From NCBI GenBank assembly GCA_030068145.1, contig JAPJBO010000402.1, positions 1 through 64,000 on the forward strand: a stretch of DNA of 64,000 nucleotides, in the 5' to 3' direction. The stretch comes from Diplonema papillatum. Its lineage: Eukaryota > Euglenozoa > Diplonemea > Diplonemida > Diplonemidae. The first letter of the stretch is position 1. The number at the start of each line of letters is the position of its first letter. This document shows, piece by piece, positions 3,050-62,745 of the stretch. A program made the position numbers and the translations under genes. The notes under the pieces are model-generated. The model was not told the origin of the DNA. It worked only from the letters and a program-made list of their open reading frames with translations, and ran no database searches.

Positions 3050-6000
3050 CTACTCAAGGCTTGTGGTGCTCGGTACGTCGTCCAGGCTTTTGGACTGCTT
3101 GAGGACTCCGCCTTCGGCGCCCACCGGGTAGTAGTATTCCTCTTCGGCGTCCGGTTTGAGCTTTTTGAGGGCTCGGCCTTTTCTGAAAGCTGGGGGTGCG
3201 GAAGGCGGCGGGGAGGGCGGTATGGGCGGCTTCTGGTAAAGGGGGACAGATGCTTGCGACGGGGTGAACGGGTTAAAAATCGGCGGTCGGGGCGGGATGA
3301 CGATGGAGTCGGAGAAGTCCGATTGAAAGGAGTCCGAGTCTTCATCGGGAGACGAAGACGGCAGCATGTCGCCCGTGGAGGTCCGGTTGGACAGGGCCAC
3401 GTTCGGTACATCGTACGACCTCACTTCAGAATCCACCGGCGCGCTGAGGGTCCCGTATAATTTCGTGGATAAGTTTTTGAACGGGCCAGCCGGCGGCAGG
3501 CTGCCCCTGCTGGAGGTCCGGAGCAACTGGAAGCTTCCCCTTTGCGACAGGATCGAATCCGAGGGGACGTAACCAATCGTGTCCTGGATCTGCTTCGCAG
3601 TCGGGCGTGCCCGGTAGTCAAACTGCAACAGGGAGCACGTCAAGGTGACCAGAGCAGGCGGATACCCTTTGCCGAGTAGATCCTCTTCAATGCTTTCCTC
3701 GAACTTCTTCTGTCCAAGCCGCAAGACATCCGTAAACATCATCCTCGTGTTCTTGTGCTCAACCCGTCGGGTCGCTGTTGCGTAACAGATACAACCCAAA
3801 GCCCACAAGTCAACCTCTGTCCCGTATCTCCTCTCCCAGCATTCAGGCGCAATATACGGCAGGGTCCCCGCCTGCGTCCTGCAGTATTCATTCGCATCGA
3901 CAGACGTCGTCAAACCGAAGTCGGTGACCACGAGCTTCGTCCCATTGTCCGCCATCAACACGTTTTCCGGCTTCAAGTCACGATGGACCAGCGGTGGCGA
4001 CATCGTGTGCATGTAGTCCAAGCAGTTTGCCAACTGCCCCACGAAATTCAGCACGGTTTCGAACGGTAAGCAGTGGTGCGACAGCACGAAGCCTCGCAAG
4101 TCGCCCTCCGGGAAGTAGGGCATGATGAGGCACACGTACCGCGGGGACGGGCGGAAGGAGTCTTTGGTGCGTTTGTCGGCCGACAGAAGTCGATCGTCTT
4201 GCCCGTCCGCGTCTTCGACCCAGTTTAGGGTGGTTTCGAGGACTTTAATCATGTTTGGGTGCCTCTGCAGCTGCCGCATGACGGAGAACTCGCGCATGGC
4301 CTCGTCCTGCTCTTCGCTCGAAGAGCAGGGGATGTACTTCATCGCAAGCAGCACCTTGTCCGCCCGTCTCCTGACCAGGTACACCACGCCGTATGCGCCG
4401 GACCCGAGCTTCGAAACGAGGTCGTACTTGCTGTCGGGACCTTCAGCCCCGGCTGGCTTCCGCCTCCTCGTCACCAAGATGGCCATGGTGCAGAAACTGA
4501 CAGCTACCACACCGCTCGGGATCCAGAAGTACAGCGCGCTGCTGCGGGAGAGGCCGAACAGCCCGTCCCCGGGGGGCTTGACCGGTTGGGACGAGATCGC
4601 GAGCGGCAGGAAGTTGAGCGAGAAAAAGGGGCTGCCCAGCACCTTGGCGCGGCACTCGGGGAGCGCGCCGCAGCAGCCGGTCGCGCACTGCCCGCCGATG
4701 GGCGGCAGCGTGCACGGCGTCGCGTTCGTGGGAGCCGGGCACGCGCCCAGCGAGAAGCAGACGTACGCCCGCGGCGCGGCCACCTCCGGCCGCACCGTGA
4801 CGACGTACGGGCTGTCCGACGGGTACGCGCTGTCCTCCGTGGTCGGCAGCCTCGAGGAGCAATCCGGGTACTGCGACACGCGGATGCTGTAGAACGCCTC
4901 GGGGCTGATTCCGGAGAGTGAAATGTCGATGGAATCGCCGACGACCGGGCTTTCCGGGGAGCATGTGAACGACGGGACTACGACGCTCGTCGAGATGTGG
5001 CCGCTAGTGGACACTGCGAACGTGTGGGTCTCGTTCTTGCGGATCCCGCCGAACATGTACATGGAAGGCGACGACCCGCTCCCTCCGTTTGGGGGCAGCC
5101 CGGCGAAGATGGGGCTGCGGATGTCCCGGGCAGACGCCGGCACCGCCAGATCGACCTGCGACCAGTGGTTGGTCGCTGCGTTCCACATGTACAGCGGCAT
5201 GGAATCGCTGAAAGACCAGATGTCCCCGGTGGCGAACAGCGTGTTGCCGAACATGGTGCTGCGGATGTACGGGATTCTCACGGGAGGCTCCGGCGTCATT
5301 CTATCCCAACGGTTGGACGAATACGTGTAACGGAAGAACTGACTCTCCCACTGAACCGGATTTGCGTTCGGCCTGCGACCTCCCAGGATGTAAATGTGGT
5401 CGGAATTGCTGACCAACGCGAAGTCAACGACACCAACCGGCAAACCTGCCTGCCGTGTCACCACCTGCGGGGAATCAAGACTCCACTCGAACATAGAATT
5501 GGACACCGTTTGTTCCCCGTTTTCATCAACCGTGACGCCGCCGGCGAACAGAACGATTCCTTGGTGGTAGATAGCCTGCATCCGAGCCCTCGGCTCGGGC
5601 AGCACGCCGGGGAAAATCTTCCACTGGCTGCCGGAGGCCGCGTTCATGTCCCAAATTAGAATGTCCCTTAGACTCGCGGACGGGGCGACGCCGACTTTTT
5701 GGTAAGCCCCCGCCATGAGCACGACGATTCTCCCTTGCAACGGCGCCGCGAACTGCCTCCCTGAGATGTTGTAGCCATCGGGTATGGGATCAAACCCGCC
5801 TATCCAGCGGGTGCCTTGCGCTGTGTCCAAGCAATCGACAGAGCTGATCATGCACTCTTCCGTTGCGCAGTCCCAATCGTTTGCACCGCCGAACAGGCAC
5901 AAATACTCGCCAGAAACGCTCGCGGAAGCGTTGATTCGGATGTCTGGAAGGTCATTGTCCGGTACATACAGGCAAGCTGGACTCGTACACTGTCCGTATA

Positions 6001-6070
6001 CCTCGCACGCGAACAGAACGTGGGACAATACGTAGACGGCGGACCAGCCTGCCACTGGTGGCTTCAGCAT
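3050..6070 (-). CDS. Receptor-like NEK-type Ser/Thr protein kinase with Kelch-like ectodomain
   Basis: The product is a 1006-residue single-pass membrane kinase. The ATG at 6070 begins a signal peptide (residues 1-26, hydrophobic SAVYVLSHVLFACEVYG). Residues about 30-370 carry Kelch-like beta-propeller motifs (VLFAGGV, YILGGRR, MYMFGGI) and a Cys-rich stretch follows at 430-475. A transmembrane helix lies at about 512-534 and is followed by the basic stop-transfer TRRRK. The kinase domain (about 549-833) has all key motifs: GSGAYG 556-561, Lys578, HRD 696-698, DFG 717-719 and APE 741-743. The catalytic core most resembles the NEK group. The tail (about 840-1006) is Ser/Pro-rich, probably disordered. 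It should phosphorylate Ser/Thr targets in the cytosol in response to an outside ligand; ligand and pathway are unknown. The frame is continuous with no intron. Confidence 0.9.
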   Translation of the reverse strand: MLKPPVAGWSAVYVLSHVLFACEVYGQCTSPACLYVPDNDLPDIRINASASVSGEYLCLFGGANDWDCATEECMISSVDCLDTAQGTRWIGGFDPIPDGYNISGRQFAAPLQGRIVVLMAGAYQKVGVAPSASLRDILIWDMNAASGSQWKIFPGVLPEPRARMQAIYHQGIVLFAGGVTVDENGEQTVSNSMFEWSLDSPQVVTRQAGLPVGVVDFALVSNSDHIYILGGRRPNANPVQWESQFFRYTYSSNRWDRMTPEPPVRIPYIRSTMFGNTLFATGDIWSFSDSMPLYMWNAATNHWSQVDLAVPASARDIRSPIFAGLPPNGGSGSSPSMYMFGGIRKNETHTFAVSTSGHISTSVVVPSFTCSPESPVVGDSIDISLSGISPEAFYSIRVSQYPDCSSRLPTTEDSAYPSDSPYVVTVRPEVAAPRAYVCFSLGACPAPTNATPCTLPPIGGQCATGCCGALPECRAKVLGSPFFSLNFLPLAISSQPVKPPGDGLFGLSRSSALYFWIPSGVVAVSFCTMAILVTRRRKPAGAEGPDSKYDLVSKLGSGAYGVVYLVRRRADKVLLAMKYIPCSSSEEQDEAMREFSVMRQLQRHPNMIKVLETTLNWVEDADGQDDRLLSADKRTKDSFRPSPRYVCLIMPYFPEGDLRGFVLSHHCLPFETVLNFVGQLANCLDYMHTMSPPLVHRDLKPENVLMADNGTKLVVTDFGLTTSVDANEYCRTQAGTLPYIAPECWERRYGTEVDLWALGCICYATATRRVEHKNTRMMFTDVLRLGQKKFEESIEEDLLGKGYPPALVTLTCSLLQFDYRARPTAKQIQDTIGYVPSDSILSQRGSFQLLRTSSRGSLPPAGPFKNLSTKLYGTLSAPVDSEVRSYDVPNVALSNRTSTGDMLPSSSPDEDSDSFQSDFSDSIVIPPRPPIFNPFTPSQASVPLYQKPPIPPSPPPSAPPAFRKGRALKKLKPDAEEEYYYPVGAEGGVLKQSKSLDDVPSTTSLE

Positions 6071-7707
6071 GCGGGGACTGCCCTGTCAGAATCGCTTCCA
6101 CGAACGCGGGCGGCAAACTCTTCTTTATAAACGTTCGAGCCGTAGAGACGTACGCGGCTGATGGAGCACTTCCCCTTTCGAAGCAATTGGGCGAAAGCGA
6201 CGCGTTTGCGGAGGAAGAAGAAACGGTAAAAAGGCGGTGGTCCACCGCAAGCGATTTGCTAGCTGCCCTCGCTGCAGCTTTTTGTGTTTCCGACGACCCC
6301 GTATGGGCGTACAGATTGGTGTCTTTCGACGTTTTGTGCTTGCGGGGTTCAGCTTTGTGTGTGACAGTGTTTTTTGTGCTACCGTCGATCCCGATTTGTG
6401 TTTCCGGCGATCTTTATTTGATTGCGACGTATTCTTAAGTCTTTTTTTCCGTGGCCAGCAGGGCACCAGGAGATTTCACGATAGACGGATAGAGCGCTCG
6501 ACGAAGCAGACGCTGGACTGAATTTGGGCGGGCGTCGAGTCTAGCTCCGCCGCACCCAACGGACGGGCACGGTCTTGACGCGGGTGTTTCTATGTTCTGT
6601 TGCTCGTTGTGCTTTGTTCCCTGGAACTCCCCTTCTCCCCTTCCTCCAGGTGTTGCAAGATCCTGTGGGTGAAACAGTGTAAACTTTGTTCTGTCGGCGA
6701 GCTGCGGTGGGTACACACCGCCGCCGTCGTCAATGAAATGGCGGCAAGAGAGGGGGGAAAATCTTCGTTTAATGGGGGGGGGGGGGAATCTGTTTAATGT
6801 TTAGGCAGAGCACTGCCTCTCATGCATGGTTGACGCATGAGAGGAGCATCAAGTTGTAGGGGGTCGTGGATATTGGTGCTAGTTTTGAGGGATAAGGTTG
6901 TAGGGGAGGGAGAACCTACGCACCCAGAATAGGCTTTGAAGTTCCGATCGGCCTAGCACCTGACAATTCATTGTGGGGAACCGCGCAACAACGGCACTAC
7001 AGACATTCGGGTCTTCGCGCGACGGTCGATCGCACCGTCTCATTCTAGCGTTTGGTGCGGTTTAAAGGTTCGATGGTTTAGGGTCTTCGGTTGGCCGTTG
7101 AGGCTGGGAGTCGGGTACTGAAAGTGACCCAGTTTGTGACTAATGACTAATTTCTGTTCGAAGACTGGTTAGGGGACACACTAAAGTTCGGGGTGGGGGG
7201 TGACAACTGAGCCGCCAGCCCAGGCGGAGAGGTTCCAACCGGGAAATCGCGCTGCTCGCTGCAAGCTGTCGCAGCGCGGGTAGCAATTCTGCGGTTACCG
7301 AGGGCTGCGCATAGCTTTCGAACAATCGCATGCAAAGTTCTACTCCTTGCGTTCTTTCACTGCTACCGGATGCGCTGCGCGGCGTGAAGTGTTAAGAGGA
7401 GCAGCTGACATGGCAGCCGGCTCGGGAGACAAGTACCGCGGGGCAGAAGTAAGAGGGGAAGCGCGCCTTTATACCAGCATGCAAAACGTTGTCGACAGGT
7501 GTGCTGCCAGAAAAGCCTGACAAAAGGGAGGTAGAACATGCTGTGTCACGGAGCGAAGCCGAAAGCTTCTTCCTCCTTGCAGGGAGAACGGAGCCCGGGG
7601 GGTTCCAGCCCTCTTGTTAAGAATCAGCCACTTTGGCCGGATAGCCAGATAAACGCAGCCGGCTGATGGATGGATGGATGGTTCTTAACAAGCACCCCAG
7701 GAGGCCT
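6071..7707. other. Spacer between kinase and nitrilase genes
   Basis: No supported gene. It contains a G-run (about 6774-6785) and a dispersed repeat at about 6795-6855 (GGCAGAGCACTGCCTCTCATGC) that recurs inverted at 20370-20425, plus a short GATG microsatellite near 7666-7681. The rest has no feature I recognise. Confidence 0.55.
6083..6084 (-). promoter_or_regulatory. Possible spliced-leader acceptor for the kinase gene
   Basis: On the gene strand a CAG dinucleotide site (GATTCTGACAG) lies about 12 nt before the ATG at 6070. If the organism trans-splices a spliced leader, as Euglenozoa do, this is the nearest candidate acceptor. It rests on position only. Confidence 0.25.
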
Positions 7708-8769
7708 TCAGCGCAGAAAGACAGCAGAACCCGTATCTCGCGGTGTTAAAGTGCTGGGCAAAGAATGAGTGGCCACGTCACGCCGGGGGCTGGCGTCGGC
7801 TTTGCCGAACTTGACAGTCTGCCGCGGGGTTTCGTCTACAGCCAACGAGAAGACGTCGGGCCGGGCGTAGTGCCCCACCGCGTCGAAATCGTACCGGGAC
7901 TTGACGATGTCCGCCAGGTCGATTTCGGCGTGCAGCAGCCCTTCCTCCTTGCGCAGGGGCCCCGCCAAGACTTCGCCCAGCGGGCTCACAATCACGCTAC
8001 CCCCGTTGATGAGTGGCCGGCTCGGATCCCAGCCCGGGGGGGCTTCCTCGTTCGACTCGTTTGGCGATGGTTGGACTTGGACAGCGCTGACGACAAAGCA
8101 ACGGCCTTCGTGTGCAATGTGGCGCATGGAGCACTGCCAGACGTCTCGTTCATCCACTGTGGGAGCGCACCAGACGTTCAGTCCTTTGGCGTACATGGCC
8201 ATGCGGAGCAAGGGCATGTGGTTTTCCCAGCAGACGGCGCCTGCAAAGCGCAACGGCCCGCACTGGATGACCGGAAGCGTCGACCCGTCCCCTTGCCCCC
8301 AGATAAGCCGCTCCGCGCCCGTCGGAACCAGCTTCCGGTGCTTCCCGGCGAGGCCCACGGCGGGGGTGAAGTACACGGCCGTGCAGTACAGCGTGTGGCC
8401 GTCCCGCTCCACCACGCCGACAACCAGGGCGGCGCCGGTTCTTGCCGACAGCTGCGCGAGCGCGTCGGTTTCGGGGCCGGGGACGTCGACGGCGTTCTCG
8501 TAGTACCTAGCGAACTCGTCCCGCCCCTCTTGCAGCCGGTAGCCGACGGGAGTGCCGAAGGACTTGCCCTTAGGATACCCGCCGAGCAGCGCCTCCGGCA
8601 TGACGACCAACCTGCACTTCGCCGCGGCAATAGCAGCCTCGTAGCCGAGGACCGCCTGCAGCGTGCGCTGCTTGCCCTGCGGGTGCGACCCGAGCTGCAG
8701 AGCAGCGACCACGCACCTCCCCGCCTCCGCGGCCGGCGGCGGGCAGCCCGCGGCGGGGGCCGGCCACAT
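7708..8769 (-). CDS. Nitrilase (carbon-nitrogen hydrolase, branch 1)
   Basis: The product is 353 residues, near the usual nitrilase length. The ATG at 8769 is the first in frame and places the conserved strand (VVAALQLG) at residues 20-27. The catalytic triad is complete: Glu59 in MPEALLGGYP, Lys146 in HRKLVPTGAERL and Cys180 in GAVCWENHMPL. The CWEN sequence and the KLVPT...WGQGDGS block are typical of true nitrilases, which hydrolyse organic nitriles to acid and ammonia, rather than amidases or Nit/Fhit proteins. The substrate cannot be read from the sequence; cyanoalanine-type and arylaliphatic nitrilases share these motifs. There is no obvious targeting signal, so a cytosolic enzyme is likely. 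It could be an acquisition from bacteria, but GC use matches its neighbours. Confidence 0.93.
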   Translation of the reverse strand: MWPAPAAGCPPPAAEAGRCVVAALQLGSHPQGKQRTLQAVLGYEAAIAAAKCRLVVMPEALLGGYPKGKSFGTPVGYRLQEGRDEFARYYENAVDVPGPETDALAQLSARTGAALVVGVVERDGHTLYCTAVYFTPAVGLAGKHRKLVPTGAERLIWGQGDGSTLPVIQCGPLRFAGAVCWENHMPLLRMAMYAKGLNVWCAPTVDERDVWQCSMRHIAHEGRCFVVSAVQVQPSPNESNEEAPPGWDPSRPLINGGSVIVSPLGEVLAGPLRKEEGLLHAEIDLADIVKSRYDFDAVGHYARPDVFSLAVDETPRQTVKFGKADASPRRDVATHSLPSTLTPRDTGSAVFLR

Positions 8770-13800: not shown

Positions 13801-14994
13801 AACGAAGCCATGTCCTTTTTTCGACGATGCTACGTTTTCTAGCTCAGGCACAACGCTAACGCAGCAGCAAGTCTTCCTCGGTGAAATGACACAGAGAGAG
13901 AAAGGGGGCGCAAGACTTTCGAAGTAGGGAACGACGCCATGAGGGACTAGCACCCGCTGGTTTCTTCTTTGTTGGATGAATTCATTGTTTCTCATCTCAC
14001 CCGTCATCCGTGTAGAAAGAAGAGGGGGGGTTGCTCGTAACAAACCGCCGCGAGGACTCTCCTCTCGCTGGGATGAAAGTGCTTGCGCTGAGGGAGCAAA
14101 ACATCTGAGGTACAGCCGGTCACCTATTTATTTCCTCAGTATTCCTCTTTTTGGATCGAGGATCGAGCTCGTAATGCGCGGTGCCACTACCGAAGAATGG
14201 GGAGTCGTAGCTACTGCCAGCTGCTAATGGTGTCGCTTCTTTTTCTCGGTTGTCGGGCAGAAGCATGTCTCCCATCAGGTCTTCGAGAAAAAGTGCGTAG
14301 GGTTGCTCATTATTTTACCACAGGTGTCCGCCGAAACAGGCAGGGTAGATGGTTGGTAAAAAGAAAATGGGCTCGATACAAGACGACTCCCTGATGAGTG
14401 GAAAGGATCCAGCTGCTGTTTCTAACCCGAAAGGAAGTATAAGGCGCATCGACGCGTGCCCTAAGTGCTAGAGCAGGGACGCGTCGTACCCGCAAGATGG
14501 AAGCAAAAAAAAAGAAGGCAGGGAATGTACTGAATGGGCTTGCGTCCTTCCTCTTCCGTGGTATGCGGGAAGGGACGGTTGAGAGTTGAGTGATTCAACG
14601 AGACGTGTTACTGTGTAATCTGTGTATCAACACGTGGTGTGGGGTTGCCCTGTCCATCCAGGGTACGTGCACTTTTCAGGAAGACTACCGAATGCTAACA
14701 ATCGCAGAGCATTCAATTCGAGCCTGGGGCCGCTTGCCAACATCCCATGTAGATGCTTAGTTGGGCAGGAGCTGCGTGTATCGACGCGTGATGCGGTTTC
14801 CCTGTCCCATCGGAATAAATGGGTACACCTGCAGGTGCATTGTCGAAGCGATCGAGCCCCCGGTTCCACTCGACCGTCATGCCGCGGCCGAAGGTATCAC
14901 GCCGAAGTCCCAAGTCAGAACCGAAGGAGCCACCGGTGCTTCTCGAGGGAAAGCGAGAACCCTCAGCGAGCGCTTGCGCTTCTTTCCCGCGCCG

Positions 14995-15165
14995 CGTCGT
15001 TTCGATGGCTCGACAGGTCTCGCCCTGTCCCCCGGACGAGCCACCTCACAGCGTCGTTTCGATGGCTCGACAGGTCTCGCCCTCTCCCCCGGACGAGCCA
15101 CCTCACAGCGTCGTTTCGATGGCTCGACAGGTCTTGCCCTGTCCCCCGGACGAGCCACCTCACAG
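14995..15165. repeat. Three-copy 57-bp tandem repeat at the gene 3' end
   Basis: Three nearly identical 57-bp units begin CGTCGTTTCGATGGCTCGAC and end GAGCCACCTCACAG, with one or two substitutions each. On the minus strand the first unit met by the ribosome supplies the stop codon of the large end-processing protein. Each unit also carries CTGTGAGG, which contains a donor-like GTGAGG. Confidence 0.9.
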
Positions 15166-18100
15166 GTACATTTTCGAAGCGACGAGCATTCGGCTCCACT
15201 CTGCGGCCGCCAGGTCCTCGCGCGGTATTTCGCCCCTGTGGCTGCGCAAGAGGTGCACGACGTAGGCGCCGAGGGTGAATCCTTCCGGAATGGGGAAAGC
15301 GTAGTCGGATTCAACGCCGTTGACGCTCGCGGCCAGGTCGAAGAGAGACACGAACGCCGCCCCGCTGAGCTCCGGCGGCTGGTCGAAGCCGACCACGACG
15401 GTTTTGAGCAGGCCGAGCGCCGAAGCGGAGGCCCGCGACGCGACGGCGCAAGGCGTCGTGCCGCAGACTTTGCGGAGGGTGATCAGGTCGATGCAGAGCG
15501 ACTGCGCTGGGTCCTCGTTGTCGGGCACGTAGGCGGTGTGATAAGGCGAGAGTACCGAAGGAACTACCGCATCCGACAGGTTCGAGAACGCGGGCGGCTG
15601 CTCCCACGTGCGCAGCGTCGTCGAGAACAGCAGCTGCGGGAGGTTTCGAGGGGAAGCCAAGTACTCGGTGAGCCCCGTCGACACCTTCGCCCCTGCAGCC
15701 TTAGAGCAGGACTGCGCTTCTCTAAACTTATACACCCTCGCCGTGTTCCGGCCACGTTGTTTTCGGGTGCCGAAAAGGCGGCCACGCTCCCAGGAGATCG
15801 CCTGCGGGTCTACTATGTGAGACATGATGTCGGTGGGGTCGCGTGCCGACGGCATGTCAGGGTACGTTTTGAACCGCGCTTGGAATGCCTCGGAGAGGGA
15901 GAGGACGAATGCTTTGTACTTGGCGTACGACACGAAGAGGTCGAGGAAGAACACGCGGAACCCCGACTTCAGCTTGATTTCGGGCAGAGCCTCGCTTTCG
16001 TACGGCCCGTGGCACTCGGTGACGACGCAAGCGAGCGTGGCGGAGTCCGTCTCCGGGAAGAAGAAATCGCGTGTGAAAGTCAGGATGAAGGGCAGCCAGC
16101 CGGAGGCTTCCAGGTCGAACGCTTTCGGCTCGCCCGCCTCCCCTGAGGCCAGCAGCACGTCTAGATCGAGGTAGCACCGGAAGACGCTTCCCCGCATCTC
16201 CTCCAAGTAAAAGAACGAAAACCGGGAGCTGACGGTCTTGCACCAGAACGCCAGATACGCGTCCGTGAGGTTCCCTGGGCAGTGGTACCGCGCGCCTCTT
16301 TGGCTGATGTGCGTCGGTGCTTCGGTGCACAAGCGGACGGCTTCGACGACCCCCTTTTCTTGCGACAGCCCGGCGAAGGCGCAGAGCATGAAGCATTCCA
16401 GGGCATCTCCTGGGGTGTACAAGTCCAGTTCTTTCCGCCCCCCCAAAGGATGCGGTTCCATGATGGCTCTCGGTGTCTGGTGCGACGGGAGCTGGAGACG
16501 GTCGAAGGCGGCAGGGCCGTCTGATTCTTTCAGGGCGGGCCAGTGCTGCGAAACCGAGGCGAATTCAACGAGATTCGCCGGCGCCCACGGGAATGAAGGC
16601 GGCGCAGGCCGTTCGCTGCTGCTGCCACCAAGGGGAATGCGCAGGGCAATGGACATGCGATTGGTTGCTGGGTCGAAGTGGAGGATGCAGAGTTCGCGCA
16701 TGACGACGTCGAACCCGCACGGGGAGAATTCGGGGTCCAAACCGTGGGTTTCGTCGAAGTCGGGCGTCGACGATTTGTCTAGCGGCGCCTTGCCTAAGGT
16801 CACGTGCGGAGGGTGGACCTTCCCCGGTGCGCCGTCTACGGCGCAGACGATCCGATCCAGGACAGCCTGGGCAGCGGCGAGAAGGGGGTCCGTGGACAGC
16901 TCGCCGGTGGTCGGGTCGAGGGCTTCGGGGACCAGCGAGATGCTTGCGCTGCCCCTGCTTTCGTCGGGGGTTTTCAGCGCTTTCCGGGCGGTCAGCCGGA
17001 ACGGCGTGTCCAGCCCAGCTTCGGCGAGGGATTCACGCACGAGGCGGATGCCGGGCTCGCTGCAGGCGGCGTCCACCGGGAGGTACGGCCAGACGACGTT
17101 GGCGTGGGGAGGCCACGACTTGAACGCCTTCGCGCCCAGTGCCGCGCGCGCGAACTCGCACCGCCGTGCGGTGCTTCCGTACCCGGGGGGAACCCATGCC
17201 AGCGCAGTCGCCCGGTCGAGTCGGTTCACGGACAGCGTCGATTTCGGCCGCGTTTGCTGCGCGGCAAGCCCCGCCTCGCACACCGCGCCGCGGCCGGCCG
17301 CCGCGTACTCGACGAGCACGCCGTAGTGGTCCGACGGCGGGAGCAGCGGAAACGGGCACGGGTCGGCTCCGGCGCCGGCCGCCGGCGGCGCGCTGGCGAA
17401 CCTGGCGAACACCGCCTCAGCGACAGCGGCGGCGGCGGCGGGGCGGTCGCCGGACGGGCGGAGCACGCCCTCGGCCGCGAGCAGCCGCAGGCACGCGGCG
17501 AAGGTGTCCGGTGCGGGCCCGCCGGCGTCGACGGCAGCGGGCGCCGGCGGCGAGAACGCACCTGGCGGCGCGAGGTGCACGCGGGCGGCACGCGCCACGG
17601 CTGCCGCCTTCGGGCCCAGGGCGGCGGTGGCGGACGGTTCGGCCCACCCGTGCGCCGGCTCTACCAGCCCTTCCGCCAGCCGCGCTTCGCACGTCTCGGC
17701 GTCGCACGCCAGTGTGCACACAACCTCGTCCACGCACACCGGATCCGTGCGTCCGGACCCAGCCAGCAAGCCACGAACCAGCTCCCTCGATTCGAGTACG
17801 TGCGCTGGCGTTGCGTGGAGCCTGTCCACCACGACCAACGCGAACGGCCGCGCCCCCGGGGGGGGAGCGCCGCCGCGGTCGAGTGCGAACGCGTGGATGC
17901 TGCTGTTCGACACGACCGCCACGCGCGCCCCGTCCGGCGCCCGGATGCAGCCGGCGGCGAGGGCCTCGAGCAGCATGCCCGCCACCGTCGACTTCCCGCT
18001 TCCGTTCGCCCCGCGGAGGTACACGACCTTCGCGCCGGGCCCAGCGGCGACGGCCCACGACTCACACCCGCCCACCACCGGGAGAACGGGGGGAACGGCA

Positions 18101-20058
18101 ATGACCGCTTCTTCGACGGTTCGGGGGACCTGCGTGGCCCAGCGGGCAGCCTGCGTGCCGAGGAGCCGGTGGGCGGTGGGGACGAGGTGCTCAGGGAGGG
18201 CAGGCGGGGTGGAGAGGATGCGGTCCATCGTTTTGTCCAGCCCGGTAACGGAGCACCAGGCCGCGAGCGGGTTGGTCGCGGGGGAAAACGTCGGCGCGGC
18301 GGCGGCGGCGGCCGGCGGCGGGTCGCGCAGGCCCTTCCAGTCGACGGCGAAGCTCTCGGGGCTCGCCGCGTCGAAGTTGAAGTCGCCCGCGAGCAGCAGC
18401 TGCTGCGCCGCGCGGCCGGGGCCGGTCAGCACGGCCGTCAGGTCCCGCAGCTGCAGGCTCCGCTTGCCGGCGGCGTCCGCCGCCTTGTCCGACGTCAGGT
18501 GCGTGTTCGCCACCGTCACCTGCACCACGCCCGCGAACTCCAACCCCGCGCTCCCGCAGCTGAACTCGACGATGCTCGTTTGTATGTGCGGGCTGTACAA
18601 ATGCATTTTAGCCGCAACGGGCGCGACCTTCGGCCAAAGGATCGCCGCGGGTGAAGACGATTCTCGCCCTTCGAGCCCCTGTTGCGGGCTGACAGCATAT
18701 CGGACGAGAATCATGGTCTCGGGCGCTTCTCCCGTGGACAACGCGGGGGGTGTAATGGCGTAGCTTCGCTGAATGACCGGGTGGTTGAGAAGGAACTTGA
18801 TGAACACAGTGTCGCTGGTCTCTTGAAGGCACACCACGTCGGCGGAGGCCCCGCTTATCTCCGCTACGAGCGCCTCCCAGCGCGCCTCGTGGAGCGTTTG
18901 TGTCGATGGCGTGGCGTACTTTTGAAACAGCACGTTCCACGACACGACGCGGAGGTGCTGGCTCGGAGCGGAACCGTCCGCGGCGGCGTCGCCGCCCGGC
19001 GGGACGGCGGCAGTTCGCTCGGGTCGCCCGCGGGCCTCGTCAAAAGGGAGCGGGGCTTCGGTATTTCCGTCCTGTCCGGCTTCTGTTTGCACGGCGGCAG
19101 GCTCAACATCTTTTTGCACAGCGCCAGGTTCAACATCTCTTTGCGCAGCGCCAGGTTCAACATCTCTTTGCACAGCGCCAGGTCCAACATCTCTTTGCAC
19201 AGCACCAGGTTCAACATCTCTTTGCACAGCACCAGGTTCATCTCTTTGCACAGCGCCAGGTCCAACATCTCTTTGCACAGCGCCAGGTTCAACATCTCTT
19301 TGTACGGCGCCAAGCTCAACATCACTTTGCGCAGCGCTAAGAGCAACATCTCTTTGTACGGTACCAAGTTCAACATCCCTTTGCGCATCGCCCGGTTCAA
19401 CATCTCTTTGCAGAGCGCTAAGATCAACATCTCCTTGCGGCGTGCTAGGTGCAGCATCTCTTTGCGCGGTGCAGACTTCCCTTTCGCTGCCTCCGCCTGC
19501 CCTCTGCAGCTGAGGCTGGCACGCATCGGGGGGGTGCTTTCTGCGGCAGTTTCTGGTCGACGGGTTTCGTTGGTGCGGTGCGTCGCCTGTGGGGTCGTCG
19601 GCGTGCGCAGTACCGGAGACGGCGGATGGATACGCGTGTGTGTTCGGAGGGAGGGCGGATGAGGACGGGAGCTCGACCCATCGGCCGCTGCTGTGGTAGA
19701 CGAGCAAGCGGACGGACTCAGTCCGCGGGTAGCCTCGTCTGCTCTGGCGCGGGTTGGCGCCGCAGATGCCGTGATGGGGGGTTTGAAGCGTGCCCGCGAA
19801 CAGCTCGTCCAGTCTGTCCACTCGGTTGTCCCGGTCCCAGAACACGACGCCGTCGCTGCGGTAGGCGGTGACCCGGTGCCACGGGATTGAATCGAAGTCG
19901 CTGCTGCCGCCGTGCCGCCACTTCTTCAACGGGGTCCACATCAAGCCTTGGAACCGATCCAGGTAGCCCACCTCCACAAGATCGGCGTCCACGTTCGGGT
20001 GCCATTGCACCTTCTTGTACACAACGTCGGACCGGACGAATGACGAGCTCTTGCCCAT
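15160..20058 (-). CDS. Multidomain nucleic-acid end-processing protein: MJ1316, EEP with inserted P-loop kinase, 2H phosphoesterase, PrimPol-like primase
   Basis: The first ATG is at 20058, in a GCGCACCATGG context; the frame is open to 20265 but only with a GTG. The product has 1632 residues. Numbered from that ATG: an MJ1316 (RNA cyclic-group end recognition) domain at about 12-87; a 9-residue repeat region (VQRDVEPGA) at about 195-325; and an EEP nuclease/phosphodiesterase with Asn375 (SWNVL), Glu413 (CLQET), His520 (NTHL), Asp559/Asn561 (GDFN) and Asp910-His911 (SDHYGV). A P-loop kinase (GANGSGKST 683-691, then VVVDRLHATP) sits between the last two EEP blocks. A 2H phosphoesterase follows, with motifs HAN 985-987 and HVT 1085-1087. 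The C-terminal third (about 1200-1632) resembles archaeo-eukaryotic primase/PrimPol: CYLDLD (Asp1298, Asp1300), KSGFRVFF, IVD (Asp1417) and RLFGTRK. Inferred role: healing, trimming and perhaps filling of RNA or DNA ends. No ligase domain and no clear targeting signal are seen. Confidence 0.92.
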   Translation of the reverse strand: MGKSSSFVRSDVVYKKVQWHPNVDADLVEVGYLDRFQGLMWTPLKKWRHGGSSDFDSIPWHRVTAYRSDGVVFWDRDNRVDRLDELFAGTLQTPHHGICGANPRQSRRGYPRTESVRLLVYHSSGRWVELPSSSALPPNTHAYPSAVSGTAHADDPTGDAPHQRNPSTRNCRRKHPPDACQPQLQRAGGGSEREVCTAQRDAAPSTPQGDVDLSALQRDVEPGDAQRDVELGTVQRDVALSAAQSDVELGAVQRDVEPGAVQRDVGPGAVQRDEPGAVQRDVEPGAVQRDVGPGAVQRDVEPGAAQRDVEPGAVQKDVEPAAVQTEAGQDGNTEAPLPFDEARGRPERTAAVPPGGDAAADGSAPSQHLRVVSWNVLFQKYATPSTQTLHEARWEALVAEISGASADVVCLQETSDTVFIKFLLNHPVIQRSYAITPPALSTGEAPETMILVRYAVSPQQGLEGRESSSPAAILWPKVAPVAAKMHLYSPHIQTSIVEFSCGSAGLEFAGVVQVTVANTHLTSDKAADAAGKRSLQLRDLTAVLTGPGRAAQQLLLAGDFNFDAASPESFAVDWKGLRDPPPAAAAAAPTFSPATNPLAAWCSVTGLDKTMDRILSTPPALPEHLVPTAHRLLGTQAARWATQVPRTVEEAVIAVPPVLPVVGGCESWAVAAGPGAKVVYLRGANGSGKSTVAGMLLEALAAGCIRAPDGARVAVVSNSSIHAFALDRGGAPPPGARPFALVVVDRLHATPAHVLESRELVRGLLAGSGRTDPVCVDEVVCTLACDAETCEARLAEGLVEPAHGWAEPSATAALGPKAAAVARAARVHLAPPGAFSPPAPAAVDAGGPAPDTFAACLRLLAAEGVLRPSGDRPAAAAAVAEAVFARFASAPPAAGAGADPCPFPLLPPSDHYGVLVEYAAAGRGAVCEAGLAAQQTRPKSTLSVNRLDRATALAWVPPGYGSTARRCEFARAALGAKAFKSWPPHANVVWPYLPVDAACSEPGIRLVRESLAEAGLDTPFRLTARKALKTPDESRGSASISLVPEALDPTTGELSTDPLLAAAQAVLDRIVCAVDGAPGKVHPPHVTLGKAPLDKSSTPDFDETHGLDPEFSPCGFDVVMRELCILHFDPATNRMSIALRIPLGGSSSERPAPPSFPWAPANLVEFASVSQHWPALKESDGPAAFDRLQLPSHQTPRAIMEPHPLGGRKELDLYTPGDALECFMLCAFAGLSQEKGVVEAVRLCTEAPTHISQRGARYHCPGNLTDAYLAFWCKTVSSRFSFFYLEEMRGSVFRCYLDLDVLLASGEAGEPKAFDLEASGWLPFILTFTRDFFFPETDSATLACVVTECHGPYESEALPEIKLKSGFRVFFLDLFVSYAKYKAFVLSLSEAFQARFKTYPDMPSARDPTDIMSHIVDPQAISWERGRLFGTRKQRGRNTARVYKFREAQSCSKAAGAKVSTGLTEYLASPRNLPQLLFSTTLRTWEQPPAFSNLSDAVVPSVLSPYHTAYVPDNEDPAQSLCIDLITLRKVCGTTPCAVASRASASALGLLKTVVVGFDQPPELSGAAFVSLFDLAASVNGVESDYAFPIPEGFTLGAYVVHLLRSHRGEIPREDLAAAEWSRMLVASKMYL
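19095..19460 (-). repeat. In-frame 27-bp minisatellite coding a VQRDVEPGA repeat
   Basis: About thirteen tandem units of 27 bp (plus-strand form CAGCGCCAGGTTCAACATCT plus seven bases) encode 9-residue acidic repeats between the MJ1316 and EEP domains. One unit near 19240 lacks 3 bp (QRDEPGA), so the frame is kept. It is probably a flexible linker whose length may vary between alleles. Confidence 0.88.
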
Positions 20059-28716: not shown

Positions 28717-30809
28717 TCACTCCCATTCGAACCACGAGAGGACACGCTTTACCGTGTCGATGTCGACCTGCGGAGGAGACGACAAGGTGGGCTCGCCGAA
28801 CTCGGAGGGGGGAACCTGAAGCCAGAGGTTCGCCATCACTTTGGTCTGGCCTTCGTGGATGTCGCAGCTGCCGTGGTACGACAAAGGATCCCGGTCGCCC
28901 AGCAGGCCGGAGTCCTGCACTTCGTGGTTGTAGAAGACGACAGCGTCCCCCCGCTTGGGCTTGACGTTGATGCCCGGCCGATCTTCGACCGGCAGGGCGC
29001 AGTACCGCTTCCACCGGGCGGCGAAGTGCTTCGTCGCCGCGACGGTCGACATTTCGATGGCTTGCGCCTCGGACATCCCGTCCAGCGGGAAGAACGTGTG
29101 GCCCGAGTCGACGTCGTTCATGTACATGACGACCGTGGCGAACCGCGCGCTCCACGGGAAATCCGGGAAATCGGCTGTTTTCTGCTTCCCGAGTTTGCTC
29201 AACGGGTGCGTGTCGTAATGCGGGTAGTAGTACTCACTCGGTTGGTACCTTTGAACCTGGAAAGTTGAGTTCTTCAGGACGCCCACAGGTAGCTTGAGGA
29301 GGTTCGAAACGCGTTCGCCGATCGAAGGGAGGAGGCCGTCTCCGAACACGACGGAGGTCGACTTGCGCCACTGCTCGTCGTTCATGAGGTGGCTTTTCTT
29401 GCCGGCGGCCCGCTCGTCGAGCACCTGGGAGCGCTTCAAGTGCGGCGTCGCCCTTCGGACCACGCGGCTGATTTCGCCTTCGGTCAGGAGCTTTTCGATG
29501 TAGATGAGCCCCGGCTTTGCACTGAGCCCGCGGACCTTGATGTCCGGCTGGTTCTCTCCAATGCACACGAGCGCTTCCTCGCCCTGCTCAAGGCGCAGGC
29601 GGTTCAATGCGAACGGCTCTGTTGTTGTTGTGCGTATTTAGGAAAGGAGATCAACCTAACAATCATGTTCACTCGTAGCTTTCCCCGGCACGCCCCGGTA
29701 CTATCACTGTTGTGCAGTCTATCATCACCGATTGTTGCTGCGTATCAAGTTCAAACTACTCCTATTGTTACCTGGTTCGTGACAATTGCGTAAGAAACCG
29801 AAGTACATGGACCTCATCAGTCCAGCGCCGACCACAAGATTGAATAAATAGAACCCCCCCGACGACGGTAACTCTGAGACTTCGAACCCCGGATCTGCAA
29901 GCTAACTTTGGCTTTAAAACAAGTCCTCAGTACTCATACTCATTCACAACAACAACAACAACAACAAGAACAGCAACAAGACCAACAACAACCTACGCTG
30001 CCAGCGATATCTTCCAAGTTTACAACTCGACTCTACGAAAAAGGAAGAACTGTGAAAACGGGTTTTTGCCTAGAGGCTTTTCGTGTTATTCTGCAGATGC
30101 TTTGGGCTATCTTTGTGTCTATGCTTTCAGTTGTCTTCTTAACCATGGTTAAGTGCGCAAATGGTGTCAGCCGAAGCTGGTAAAGCTTCGGCGCCGCCCA
30201 CGTTATGTTTGTTTAGCATTGAGTTCTTTTAAGTACACGTGTTTGGCAGCGGCTGCCAAACATCCCGTGACACCGCGCGAGGTGGTAGAACGCTCGTTTA
30301 TTTTCTTTTCGATTGCTTTTGATGGGGCATGCAGGCCTGAAAATGCAAGAATGGAAAGGAGACGGGGGAAAAAAAGGGGAAAAGGTTTGTGCCCTCGCAG
30401 CTCGCCGGGCCAGCGCTCCAGATAGGACTGGGCTAGGTACTTTGGTGGCATGCGGGGTTTTTTTTAACCACCAGCTTTGCCTCTAAAAGTCCCAGGTGAC
30501 TCTGCAGAAGTTGGACATACCGTCTGTGCACTGGATACGCCTGATGCCGCTGGAAACGTTCGAGGAGCTCACGTTTGCAGTGAACACGCTAGCGGTGGAG
30601 GGTTCGGCGGAGACGAAGAAGCTCCGCTGCACGGCTACCGAAGCGCCAAGCAGAGCAACGAGCACAAAGGTAATGTGTAACAGCATCGGGCTGGTCGGAG
30701 ACGGTTCCTCATTGTCCTTGCTGGCCGTCTTCGTCCCCTGCTTGCCCGCCTGCTTCGCCGAAGCCTGTGCCTTGGCGGTGGTGTTGTCCGCGCGCTGTCT
30801 CTTCGGCAT
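28717..30809 (-). CDS. Membrane-anchored prolyl 4-hydroxylase (2-oxoglutarate/Fe(II) oxygenase), two exons
   Basis: Exon 1 is 30809-30521 and exon 2 is 29618-28717. The 902-bp intron has donor GTATGT and acceptor ACAACAG, and phase 1 matches, giving 396 residues. Without the splice the catalytic exon has no ATG before the domain core. The N-terminus is a basic, Ala/Lys/Gln-rich tail followed by one transmembrane helix at about 42-60 (LLHITFVLVALLGASVAV), a type II anchor like plant and animal transmembrane prolyl hydroxylases. The catalytic domain has the iron ligands His230 and Asp232 (PHYD) and His345 (SYHGSCDI), and the 2-oxoglutarate-binding Lys356. Spacing His345 to Lys356 is one residue longer than I expect from collagen prolyl hydroxylase. 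It probably hydroxylates proline in secretory-pathway proteins in the ER or Golgi; the substrate is unknown. Confidence 0.92.
29619..30520 (-). other. Intron of the prolyl 4-hydroxylase gene carrying two repeat families
   Basis: This intron of 902 bp contains a family D copy on the opposite strand (about 29690-29775), a CAA-type microsatellite (about 29945-29995) and a family L copy (about 30050-30178). The family L copy recurs in the SET-gene intron in the same orientation relative to its gene. Confidence 0.85.
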
Positions 30810-32772: not shown

Positions 32773-34038
32773 CTACGCTACCAGCCGAGCCTCGGCAGCC
32801 CGTGCGTGGCCTTCGAGGCCCTCCAGCCGCGCGAGCTGCACCGCATCTTTGACGAGAACCTGCGACTGCGCCGGCTCGTCGATGCGCATCCACGTCCTTG
32901 TGCGGAGGAAGTTTAGAACCGAGAGCCCCCCCGTGTACCTCGCGGTGCCGCCGGTCGGGAGGACGTGGTTCGGGCCGGCGCCGTAGTCGCCCAGCACTTC
33001 GGCCGCGCACTTCCCGATGAAGAGGCCCCCGTAGCAGTCGCACTTCCGGGCCACAGCCTCCGAGTCCTCGGTTTGGATCTCCAAGTGCTCTGGGCCGATC
33101 GAGTCGGAGACCGCGATGGCCTCGTCGATGCTGTCAACGACGACGCAGAACCCCTTTTTGACCGCCTCCCGGGCGGTGCCGGCTGTGGGCAGGACGGCCA
33201 GCTGCTTTTGGAGCTGCTCGTTGACCTTGTCGGCGAAAGCCCGCGAGATGGTCACGAGGATCGGCCGTGATTCGACGTCGTGCTCCGCCTGCGCCAGGAG
33301 GTCGGCGGCCACCGTGCCCGCGTCGGCGGTGTCGTCTGCGATCACGAGCACCTCCGACGGGCCGGCGAGCATGTCGATGGTACACTTTCCCTGCCCCTGG
33401 ACGATGCTTTTCGCGGCGGTGACCCACTTGTTCCCGGGGCCGACGATCACGTCAGATCCGACGACCTCGGCGAACATCCCGATGGCCTGCGCGCCCCCGA
33501 TGCGGATGAACCCGTCTGCGCCGGCGACGTGGGCGGCGGCGAGGGTGACGGGGCTCGGGCGGGGGGACGCGACCCACACGTTCTTCACGCCGGCGGCCCG
33601 CGCGGTGACGGCGGTCATCAGGACCGACGACGGCAGCGGGTAGCGCCCGCCGGGGGCGTAGCAGCCCGCCGACGCGACCGCGGTCACCGTGTGGCCGGCC
33701 TTGCCCCCCGGGATGTCCACCGTCATGTCGGTGATGCTTTTCCGCTGGCTCTCCGCGAAGAACCGGATGCGCTGCGCCGTCCTCTCGAGCACCCCACGCT
33801 CCGCCTCCGACAGCGACGCGAACGCGTCGCCCAGCTCCTGCTTGGTCACGTACACGTCCTGGTCGCTCGTCAGGTCGTTCAACTTGACGGCGGTCTCCTT
33901 CGCCGCCGCGGCGCCCCCCTTCTTGATCCCATCAAGAATCGCGGCCGCCTGCGTCAGCGCGACGGGGTCGACGGGCTCCGCGCAGTCCTTCGGGATGTCT
34001 TCCTTCTTGATGAACTTCAGCACCGGCTCCGACGACAT
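32773..34038 (-). CDS. hisD: Histidinol dehydrogenase, stand-alone
   Basis: The product is 421 residues from the ATG at 34038. The frame extends to 34149 only through other start codons, and those 37 residues are not HisD-like. The enzyme (EC 1.1.1.23) makes the last two NAD-dependent oxidations of histidine synthesis, histidinol to histidine, using zinc. Visible motifs: GPGNKWVTAAK, DMLAGPSEVLVIAD, zinc-ligand region AQAEHD (Gln250, His253), catalytic GPEH (Glu317, His318), Asp351 in LGDYGAGPNHVLPTGGTA and a C-terminal His411 (LEGHARAA). Length matches bacterial HisD (about 430). The GPGNxWVTAAK wording resembles the HisD part of fungal His4, but the cyclohydrolase and pyrophosphohydrolase parts of His4 are absent. 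No other histidine gene is in the window. Isolated HisD genes are known in some trypanosomatids, where they allow growth on histidinol. Confidence 0.95.
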   Translation of the reverse strand: MSSEPVLKFIKKEDIPKDCAEPVDPVALTQAAAILDGIKKGGAAAAKETAVKLNDLTSDQDVYVTKQELGDAFASLSEAERGVLERTAQRIRFFAESQRKSITDMTVDIPGGKAGHTVTAVASAGCYAPGGRYPLPSSVLMTAVTARAAGVKNVWVASPRPSPVTLAAAHVAGADGFIRIGGAQAIGMFAEVVGSDVIVGPGNKWVTAAKSIVQGQGKCTIDMLAGPSEVLVIADDTADAGTVAADLLAQAEHDVESRPILVTISRAFADKVNEQLQKQLAVLPTAGTAREAVKKGFCVVVDSIDEAIAVSDSIGPEHLEIQTEDSEAVARKCDCYGGLFIGKCAAEVLGDYGAGPNHVLPTGGTARYTGGLSVLNFLRTRTWMRIDEPAQSQVLVKDAVQLARLEGLEGHARAAEARLVA

Positions 34039-34655
34039 GATGATACGAGGCCCGCTTCTTTCTTCTTTTGGTGTTCCTTTCCCGAAAGCAAATAAAGTGC
34101 GGACTTCGACGCAACGCCGGTGTAAGAGGGTGAAAGTTGGCTCACACATCCGGAACTGCCTGCCTGCGCTCGTTCCCAGTGGACTGGCTCACTATGGTCG
34201 GTTTTTTTGTCTCAGGTAATCTGACTTATCTCGTGCGCCGGCGCTCTTCAGGTGTCAGTCTCCCGGGTGCCAAAAAATCACACTTCCACAGCTCGACGCT
34301 GCAGGCAGCGACTCACTAGCATTGACTACGAGCACAAATGCTACCAGACAGCGCGCACACGCCCCTTCCAAAGCAACTTGTCCAAGAAAGGATGTTGATC
34401 CTCGGCTTCCCGCAAGTCCATCGTTGGTCGCACACACTTTCGCATTCCGACTGCAGGCACTGACATCATTGACACAAGCAGAACCCGACCGTACACACTG
34501 GACTTATTTCACTGCAAAGGCAACATTTCAAGACGCGTGCTTTTACTCGTTTTCGTACAGAACCAGCTGGACTCAGAGAAGGGGGTAACCAAGCGCTTGC
34601 CTTCGCTGCCGAGACGTGGATCAACTACCTGGTGTGGCGTAGTTCGTCCGTATGT

Positions 34656-40622: not shown

Positions 40623-41813
40623 TCTTTGTGGCTGGTTTTCTTCTGTTTTCTGGGGTTTCCGATGATCCCGTGGGGGGCGGTACCTTTGGTTTGTTGTGCT
40701 TGGTTGTGGGGGTCTAGGAATTAGTGCCATCTCCGAAGCTCAACACATGTCGCGCAATATACGCCCTGCAGGTGTAAGATCCGCAATGGAGTCCCGCAGA
40801 GCTAGCTACACGCTACCTCCGTGAGGGAAGGCTTCGATTTCACCCCCCACCCCGGGTGCTTGCAAGAAGAGACAGTTCAGCCACGCTCTGTGCCCGACTC
40901 CTAACGGGCTTCCGGAACCTTTCGAGTGGACGGGACGCCTCTCGATTCGGCTCGTTCGAAAAAATGGAGTAGACTTTCGGAGGTCCTTTTTATTTCTTGG
41001 ATAAGCACCTGCTTTGTAGGAAATACTTGAGGACGCTGCCCAGCTGCAAAATATCAAAGGAGGTAAATGTGCTGTAGCCCACACGAAACACAGGTGAATC
41101 TGGGTTCAGCGGCGGGCGTAAGCGTTCAATCAAAAAGACCCACTGTAGTTGTATTGGTTCTCCCCCTCTAGCCTCCTTCGAAGTAAGCACAAGGCAGCCC
41201 CTCGAGTATTTCAGATCCCGTGGGCCATCGCAGGTCCTAAGCAAATGCACACGGTAGACCGGTTATGACGTTTCTTTATCGATTCTCCTCGTTCGACCGT
41301 GTGGTGCTGCGGAGAGGCCTTATAAAGATTGTGTCGGATGCATTTTCCAAGTTCACTTCCGGATCACTGCGAGTCCGCCGTGCAACGGCTACTGTAACGA
41401 AGGATTCGCAAAAGGAAAAACGGGGTGGCGTGAATCTAAAAGAAGCGAACAAAAAGGAGGTCAGAGAGAGTATCCCCAAGGACAGACGGGAAGGACGCTC
41501 GAACTTGTCTCTACGTGACTGGGCGTCGAAGCCCAACCCCAGTTCCACGCATTCCCTTGGGCGTAATCGAGCACGCGGCAGTTGGAACCGCACGCAGACG
41601 CTCGAAGCTAGAAGAAAGTCCGGTCCGGGTTTGCTCGTGCACATGACGCTGCCGCACGCTCCCGGTCGTTTGCAGTGAAGAGGTTCTTATCGGCAGAAGC
41701 TCGTTTCTCGACGCATCGTTCAGCGCTTTGCTGTGAACGCGGCAACGAGTGTTCTGAGAGCACTCAGGAGAGACGTGCCCAGGGACCAGAGTCATGCTTT
41801 TTCAGGAACACCG
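40623..41813. other. Spacer between CBM and SET genes
   Basis: It contains an inverted family C copy at about 40996-41208. The rest has short frames without domains, and no gene is supported. The first part next to 40622 should hold the CBM gene 5' untranslated region. Confidence 0.55.
40996..41208 (-). repeat. Family C repeat, inverted copy
   Basis: This is the reverse complement of 35879-36092 over about 210 bp, including both the CTCGAGGGGCTGCCTTGTGC head and the TTTCCTACAAAGCAGGTGC tail followed by an A-rich end. Confidence 0.85.

Positions 41814-56661: not shown

Positions 56662-62745
<6,084 letters not shown>

What the first reader, a model, noticed from the sequence alone, without database searches (positions are those of the whole stretch)
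15160..20058. One protein combining MJ1316, EEP, P-loop kinase, 2H phosphoesterase and PrimPol-like domains
The sequence shows intact motifs for four end-processing modules and most motifs of a fifth in a single uninterrupted 1632-residue frame. MJ1316 with 2H domains (as in LENG9-type proteins), kinase plus cyclic phosphodiesterase (as in fungal tRNA ligase) and polymerase plus phosphoesterase (as in bacterial LigD) are known separately; I know of no protein with all of these together. It would recognise a cyclic or phosphorylated end, open it, phosphorylate the 5' end, trim and fill. A ligase is absent. Diplonemids join fragmented mitochondrial RNAs by an unknown machinery, so a role there or in break repair is conceivable but speculative.
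Basis: partly seen in the sequence, partly recalled or inferred. Interest (0 to 1): 0.92.

Follow-up and report, generated by a model that had tools for sequence, protein, structure and literature searches.

The report
Five-part RNA-end repair protein, diplonemid
A single large protist protein joins a domain that recognises damaged RNA ends to several enzyme-like domains that could trim or extend such ends, and it looks like a relative of known multi-part RNA-repair proteins rather than a wholly new kind.

Summary
Minus-strand frame 15160..20058 is one uninterrupted 1632-residue protein. MJ1316 (residues 11-76), EEP (372-620) and an archaeo-eukaryotic primase domain (1242-1438, Pfam "Prim-pol 4", PPL4) score above Pfam cut-offs. 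The 2H domain is below cut-off but aligns to a 2H protein of the same genome that passes (0 of 1000 shuffles reach the score). The "kinase" is supported only at its P-loop. Two modules have a changed catalytic motif: the EEP has no SDH, the primase has Arg for the motif II His. The genome fits Diplonema papillatum. MJ1316 and PPL4 were each found once in it, both here. Multidomain RNA-repair proteins with divergent primase domains, mainly kinetoplastid, are in print (PMC5862659, passage, citing Burroughs & Aravind 2016, which I could not read). Most likely role: RNA-end healing outside mitochondria, with the ligase in trans. Mitochondrial transcript joining is disfavoured. Two AlphaFold models were too poor to use.

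The parts
15160..20058 (-). Whole gene: 1632-residue uninterrupted frame, ATG at 20058, stop at 15160-15162
19831..20028 (-). MJ1316 domain (PF04457), residues 11-76; the only PF04457 match found in the genome
   Evidence: Pfam 41.9 bits, cut-off 26.3; own-genome search
19082..19465 (-). 27-bp tandem repeat, 14.3 copies, encoding the AVQRDVEPG-type linker between MJ1316 and EEP
   Evidence: translation
18199..18945 (-). EEP domain (Exo_endo_phos PF03372), residues 372-620: WN 374-375, QE 412-413, TH 519-520, GDFN 558-561 present; no SDH follows (PEH 622-624, TAH 628-630 just after the matched stretch)
   Evidence: Pfam 36.6 bits, cut-off 24.5; PDB 7cne sphingomyelinase C E 6.5e-5, over the second half; positions
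17569..18057 (-). P-loop NTPase-like region, residues about 668-830 (limits are my estimate): GANGSGKST (683-691), possible Walker B VVVD (742-745); kinase identity not shown
   Evidence: AAA_33 E 0.018 and 0.002, below cut-off; alignment with the L036 kinase covers the P-loop only; no other own-genome match below E 0.15
16705..17217 (-). 2H phosphoesterase domain, residues about 948-1118: motif 1 H985-A-N987, motif 2 H1085-V-T1087
   Evidence: PF13563 E 0.0042 on a fragment, below cut-off; alignment to own-genome 2H protein L040, 0 of 1000 shuffles reach the score
15745..16335 (-). Archaeo-eukaryotic primase domain: PPL4 (PF18188) residues 1242-1390 and AEP_C962R (PF23162) 1249-1438; motif I D1298/D1300, motif II R1368 in place of His, motif III D1417
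   Evidence: Pfam 79.1 bits (cut-off 25) and 38.4 bits (cut-off 23); the only PF18188 match found in the genome; positions
15163..15723 (-). C-terminal region, residues 1446-1632, no family match
   Evidence: protein 3, residues 1387-1632, 0 families to E 10

Best explanation
It is a multidomain RNA-end-healing protein bearing a PPL4 primase domain, acting in the cytoplasm or nucleus of a diplonemid. Inferred order of work: the MJ1316 domain docks on an RNA end carrying a 2',3'-cyclic phosphate; the 2H domain opens the cyclic phosphate; the P-loop domain, if it is a kinase, puts a phosphate on the 5' hydroxyl; the EEP domain removes a phosphate or trims the end; the primase-like domain extends or fills, or only holds the RNA. 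Sealing is done in trans by a separate ligase; the genome has three ATP-dependent RNA_ligase loci and RtcB matches on three contigs. Shown: the frame, the MJ1316, EEP and primase families, the 2H similarity, and no ligase match in the protein. Inferred: every enzymatic step, the order of work and the location. Activity of the EEP and primase modules is doubtful because one catalytic motif in each is changed.
For: MJ1316, EEP and PPL4 above Pfam cut-offs in one frame. 2H aligned to own-genome protein L040, which itself scores 55.4 bits against a 27-bit cut-off; 0 of 1000 shuffles reach the alignment score. MJ1316 is described as recognising 2'-3' cyclic RNA ends, with diverse eukaryotic fusions to RNA-repair domains (PMC6514570, passage). 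Divergent primase domains are described in multidomain proteins predicted to work in RNA repair, primarily in kinetoplastids, the sister group of diplonemids (PMC5862659, passage). Separate ligases exist in the genome: PF09414 at 3 loci, one of them in a 1284-residue frame with a P-loop kinase-like domain and a histidine phosphatase domain.
Against: The kinase rests on a P-loop only; a P-loop occurs in 431 of 5000 shuffles. Against the L036 kinase, 20 of 1000 shuffles reach the score with the P-loop included and 723 of 1000 without it. The EEP has no SDH and primase motif II has Arg for His. Searching the own genome directly with the window's 2H region found none of the other 2H genes (best other match E 0.103), and the PF13563 genome search did not list the window's domain. 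No orthologue could be compared: viral contigs (2 scans) and genome contigs (1 scan) gave no confirmed relative, though a single protein as query reaches close relatives only; phages gave linker matches only in the rows shown; no eukaryote other than the window's own genome was within reach. Structure models are too poor to use (pLDDT 42.3 and 34.8).
Confidence: 0.5

Rival explanations
1. Mostly non-catalytic RNA-end binder: MJ1316 and 2H act, while the EEP and primase modules have decayed into binding or scaffold parts.
For: No SDH after the EEP stretch; primase motif II Arg for His.
Against: The other EEP motifs (WN, QE, TH, GDFN) and the primase acidic residues D1298, D1300, D1417 are kept; the PPL4 match is strong, and Arg may be normal for PPL4, which could not be checked.
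Confidence: 0.2
2. Small-RNA pathway enzyme: it processes or extends siRNA or Dicer products in RNA interference.
For: The genome holds 8 Piwi-family matches, and D. [quoted passage not shown] I recall, from no call, that Burroughs & Aravind linked kinetoplastid primase-like domains to Dicer-like proteins.
Against: No Dicer, PAZ or dsRNA-binding domain among the Pfam matches; an RdRP is reported already; MJ1316 points to cyclic ends, which Dicer does not leave (recalled).
Confidence: 0.13
3. Mitochondrial transcript-module processing.
For: Diplonemids join many mitochondrial module transcripts, and how is unresolved (PMC12699882 section 36).
Against: Module ends are 3' phosphate / 5' hydroxyl, which RtcB takes as they are; RTCB1 is the published candidate. 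The MJ1316 match starts at residue 11, leaving little presequence space from the first ATG. The main text of that mitochondrial proteome paper holds 0 occurrences of primase, phosphoesterase or polynucleotide kinase; its supplements were not read. The 69-residue in-frame extension upstream has only a GTG start.
Confidence: 0.06
4. DNA break repair protein with primase-type fill-in, working like bacterial LigD.
For: EEP and primase domains often act on DNA (established knowledge).
Against: MJ1316 and 2H are RNA-end modules; no ligase family and no LigD-type primase family is among the Pfam matches to E 1.
Confidence: 0.08
5. Two genes or an exon chain misread as one frame.
For: Other genes of this genome appear split by introns (RtcB matches in pieces on two contigs); the linker 205-306 has deviant GC3.
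Against: No stop in 1632 codons; the linker repeat has a period of 27 bases, a multiple of three, and stays open; GC3 is high on both sides.
Confidence: 0.03

Closest known systems
PPL4 (Prim-pol 4, PF18188) and the multidomain primase/RNA-repair proteins of kinetoplastids (Burroughs & Aravind 2016, seen only as cited in PMC5862659)
   Same: Primase domain matches the family model over positions 20-157 of 159 at 79.1 bits; fused to RNA-repair domains; euglenozoan source (inferred).
   Different: Their exact domain orders could not be read here, so whether MJ1316-EEP-P-loop-2H-PPL4 is listed is open; motif II has Arg for His.
LENG9-type MJ1316 + 2H proteins (recalled)
   Same: MJ1316 and 2H in one chain.
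   Different: No CCCH zinc finger among the Pfam matches; EEP, P-loop and primase added; the 2H first motif is HxN.
Fungal and plant tRNA ligase Trl1 (recalled)
   Same: P-loop region plus a 2H-type phosphodiesterase.
   Different: No ligase match; kinase unproven; the other modules are not part of Trl1.
Bacterial LigD (recalled)
   Same: Primase-superfamily domain with phosphoesterase modules.
   Different: No ligase match; LigD's phosphoesterase is not a 2H protein (recalled); RNA-end domains present.

Membership tests
PPL4 (Pfam family) | Match to the family profile above its cut-off | tested here: met
   79.1 bits, cut-off 25
PPL4 (Pfam family) | Residues typical of PPL4 members at motif II | not testable with these tools
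   No other PPL4 sequence was within reach
Catalytically competent archaeo-eukaryotic primase | Motif I hhhDhD and motif III hD (as given in PMC5862659) | tested here: met
   CYLDLD 1295-1300; IVD 1415-1417
Catalytically competent archaeo-eukaryotic primase | Motif II sxH (as given in PMC5862659) | tested here: not met
   GFR 1366-1368; I therefore do not file it as an active primase
EEP superfamily | Profile match above cut-off with WN, QE, TH and GDxN motifs | tested here: met
   36.6 bits, cut-off 24.5; motif positions
Catalytically competent EEP enzyme | C-terminal SDH motif (recalled) | tested here: not met
   Nearby His triplets read PEH 622-624 and TAH 628-630
2H phosphoesterase | Two Hx[ST] motifs in a LigT-like fold | tested here: inconclusive
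   HAN 985-987 and HVT 1085-1087; two own-genome frames on C549 also read HVN and HIN in motif 1; sequence relation supported, fold not shown
Polynucleotide kinase | P-loop kinase domain with lid and catalytic residues beyond the P-loop | tested here: inconclusive
   Sub-cutoff AAA_33 over the P-loop only; negative beyond the P-loop
LENG9-type protein | CCCH zinc finger + 2H + MJ1316 (recalled) | tested here: not met
   No zinc finger among Pfam matches to E 1
Trl1 tRNA ligase / LigD | ATP-dependent ligase domain in the same chain | tested here: not met
   No ligase family among Pfam matches to E 1

The most novel reading that the evidence does not exclude
Probability: 0.12. Interest if true: 0.75.

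Novelty: new member of a known kind. Interest (0 to 1): 0.45.

Why it matters
It puts an MJ1316 cyclic-end recognition domain, a 2H domain and a divergent primase domain in one chain of a marine protist, MJ1316 and PPL4 each being found once in the genome. One knockout would therefore test what this class of RNA-repair protein does. It also directs attention away from mitochondrial transcript joining, where the reported end chemistry fits RtcB instead.

Tried and rejected
Relatives elsewhere: viral-contig scans with the primase part (no pattern match) and the middle part (3 stretches matched a pattern, none confirmed) and genome contigs with the primase part (26 stretches, none confirmed) gave no relative. 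tblastn in phages gave 6 places in 5 records; the 5 rows shown all lie in the linker, residues 205-345. PHROGs (4 fragments) and NCBIfam gave weak matches only, none near a cut-off where there is one, mostly centred on the P-loop. PDB sequence searches gave no match for the primase part to E 10 and two chance-level matches for the P-loop/2H part.

Structure: two single-sequence AlphaFold jobs gave pLDDT 42.3 and 34.8. Foldseek on the first had 0 of 587 matches at E 0.001 or better; PII-like and other ferredoxin-like proteins are frequent in the 50 rows shown; I draw nothing from it. I did not search with the second model.

Motif counting as proof was rejected. Kinase by similarity to the kinase of L036 was rejected: 20 of 1000 shuffles reach the score with the P-loop, 723 of 1000 without it. 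A profile of four own-genome 2H domains gives the window region 6.7 bits, with 2 of 2000 shuffles as high or higher and five other parts of the protein at -1.8 to 0.2 bits; I count this as weak. The pairwise counts, out of 1000 shuffles, are L040 0, L039 1, L043 16, L042 719: four of the six loci were used, L041 and L044 being partial were not. PF13563 searched over the own genome did not list the window's domain, and the window's 2H region as query did not list the other 2H genes. PF23162 searched over the own genome did not list the window either, although hmmscan of the protein passes its cut-off, so absence in that tool is not strong evidence; the single-copy statements for MJ1316 and PPL4 carry the same caution.

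Literature: 10 searches. 'mj1316' is in 2 held papers, 'duf504' in 0. No paper describing this five-domain chain was met in those listings; that is no proof of absence, since Burroughs & Aravind 2016 is not held. Read: passages of PMC12699882 and its section 36 in full; passages of PMC5862659, PMC6514570, PMC10161547, PMC3359990 and PMC4599027 (the last also abstract and outline); all others only as search listings.
Full report
What is there. The frame 15160..20058 on the minus strand is a single 1632-residue open frame. Chance does not give it: 500 simulated sequences of the same length from a first-order Markov model of it had at most 590 stop-free codons in six frames. GC3 is high over the frame (0.69-0.97 in 15 of 16 blocks) apart from residues 205-306, within a linker built of a 27-bp tandem repeat that stays open in this frame. 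The first ATG stands in CACCATGG. The ORF list extends the frame by 69 residues to a GTG, with no further ATG.

Modules. Pfam names MJ1316 at residues 11-76 (41.9 bits, cut-off 26.3), Exo_endo_phos at 372-620 (36.6, cut-off 24.5), PPL4 at 1242-1390 (79.1, cut-off 25) and AEP_C962R at 1249-1438 (38.4, cut-off 23); the other six families listed are below cut-off. The EEP part also matches sphingomyelinase C 7cne at 6.5e-5 in PDB sequences, over its second half. The 2H part reaches 17.6 bits (cut-off 27) when scanned alone. The same genome has other 2H matches: 6 at E up to 1, five of them above cut-off. I compared the window region with four of the six. The number of shuffles out of 1000 that reach the observed score is 0 for L040, 1 for L039, 16 for L043 and 719 for L042, so two of four support it strongly, one weakly and one not at all. 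L040 and another C549 frame share the first motif PHxN with the window (PHVN, PHIN, PHAN), so HxN looks like a subtype mark. Against this, a direct own-genome search with the window's 2H region found none of those genes (best other match E 0.103). The P-loop at 683-691 is there as a motif, but no Pfam, NCBIfam or PHROGs match rises above chance or cut-off beyond it, the own-genome search gives nothing else below E 0.15, and alignment with the kinase of L036 covers the P-loop alone (20 of 1000 shuffles reach the score with it, 723 without).

Catalytic residues. The EEP keeps WN, QE, TH and GDFN, but the expected SDH (recalled) is missing; nearby His triplets read PEH and TAH. The primase keeps D1298, D1300 and D1417, but motif II, given as sxH in PMC5862659, reads GFR.

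Genome. The window lies on contig C402 of a 271-Mb, 2910-contig genome. A Piwi search gives five equally scored matches 5779-5780 bases apart on one contig plus three elsewhere, and RtcB gives 9 matches on three contigs. The D. papillatum papers report a 280-Mb assembly in 6181 contigs, five Piwi and three Argonaute proteins (PMC10161547, passages) and three RtcB proteins (PMC12699882 section 36). I infer D. papillatum or a very near relative. The full protein, MJ1316 and PPL4 each match once, here (the other 23 rows lie at query residues 153-369, the low-complexity linker). Exons split by introns could be missed by these searches.

How it may work. MJ1316 is described as recognising 2'-3' cyclic RNA ends, with diverse fusions to RNA-repair domains in eukaryotes (PMC6514570, passage). 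With 2H this makes a cyclic-end healing protein the most economical reading. The ligase would be separate. Candidates are the three PF09414 loci, one of which, L036, carries a P-loop kinase-like domain, a histidine phosphatase domain and a ligase domain in one 1284-residue frame counted from a TTG; the published DpRNL of D. papillatum has no recognisable import signal (PMC4599027, passage). That any of these works with the window protein is a guess.

Mitochondria. Module transcripts carry 3' phosphate and 5' hydroxyl ends, and RTCB1 is the proposed ligase. A kinase or a cyclic-phosphate opener is not called for there, the protein has little space for a presequence before MJ1316 from its first ATG, and the mitochondrial proteome paper's main text does not hold the words primase, phosphoesterase or polynucleotide kinase; its supplements were not readable here. 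I rate this role at 0.06.

Known or new. [quoted passage not shown] The Pfam family PPL4 matches this protein strongly. The kind is therefore known. What I cannot say is whether the exact chain has been shown before, as that paper is not held. I file it as a new member of a known kind, by profile, and not as an active primase.

Noticed in passing
L036:1012-4866 (+), own genome C5:667511-671365: A 1284-residue frame (from a TTG) with AAA_33 kinase-like domain (6.2e-13), histidine phosphatase domain (5.4e-12) and RNA ligase domain (1.8e-26): a second multi-part RNA-end protein in the same genome.
   Followed up: partly
own genome C924:13568-37564 (L017-L021): Five Piwi matches of equal score spaced 5779-5780 bases apart, a tandem array.
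   Followed up: no
L045:2492-3091, 6620-7060 and 7819-8553 (-): 2H domain frames on C549 with PHVN and PHIN first motifs, close in type to the window's 2H domain.
   Followed up: partly
14994-15165: 57-bp tandem repeat, 3 copies, beginning at the stop codon of the gene.
   Followed up: no
3053-6070 (-): 1006-residue frame with kelch-type repeats followed by a protein kinase domain.
   Followed up: no
38268-40730 (-): 821-residue frame with four CBM_6 stretches (carbohydrate binding).
   Followed up: no
56662-62958 (-): 2098-residue frame without any Pfam match at E 0.01; AT skew -0.413 at 60001-62000.
   Followed up: no
window: No tRNA (ARAGORN) and no Rfam match at gathering score; other named genes: histidinol dehydrogenase 32776-34149, CN_hydrolase 7711-8769, SET domain 42727-43617, 2OG-Fe(II) oxygenase 28720-29607.
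   Followed up: no
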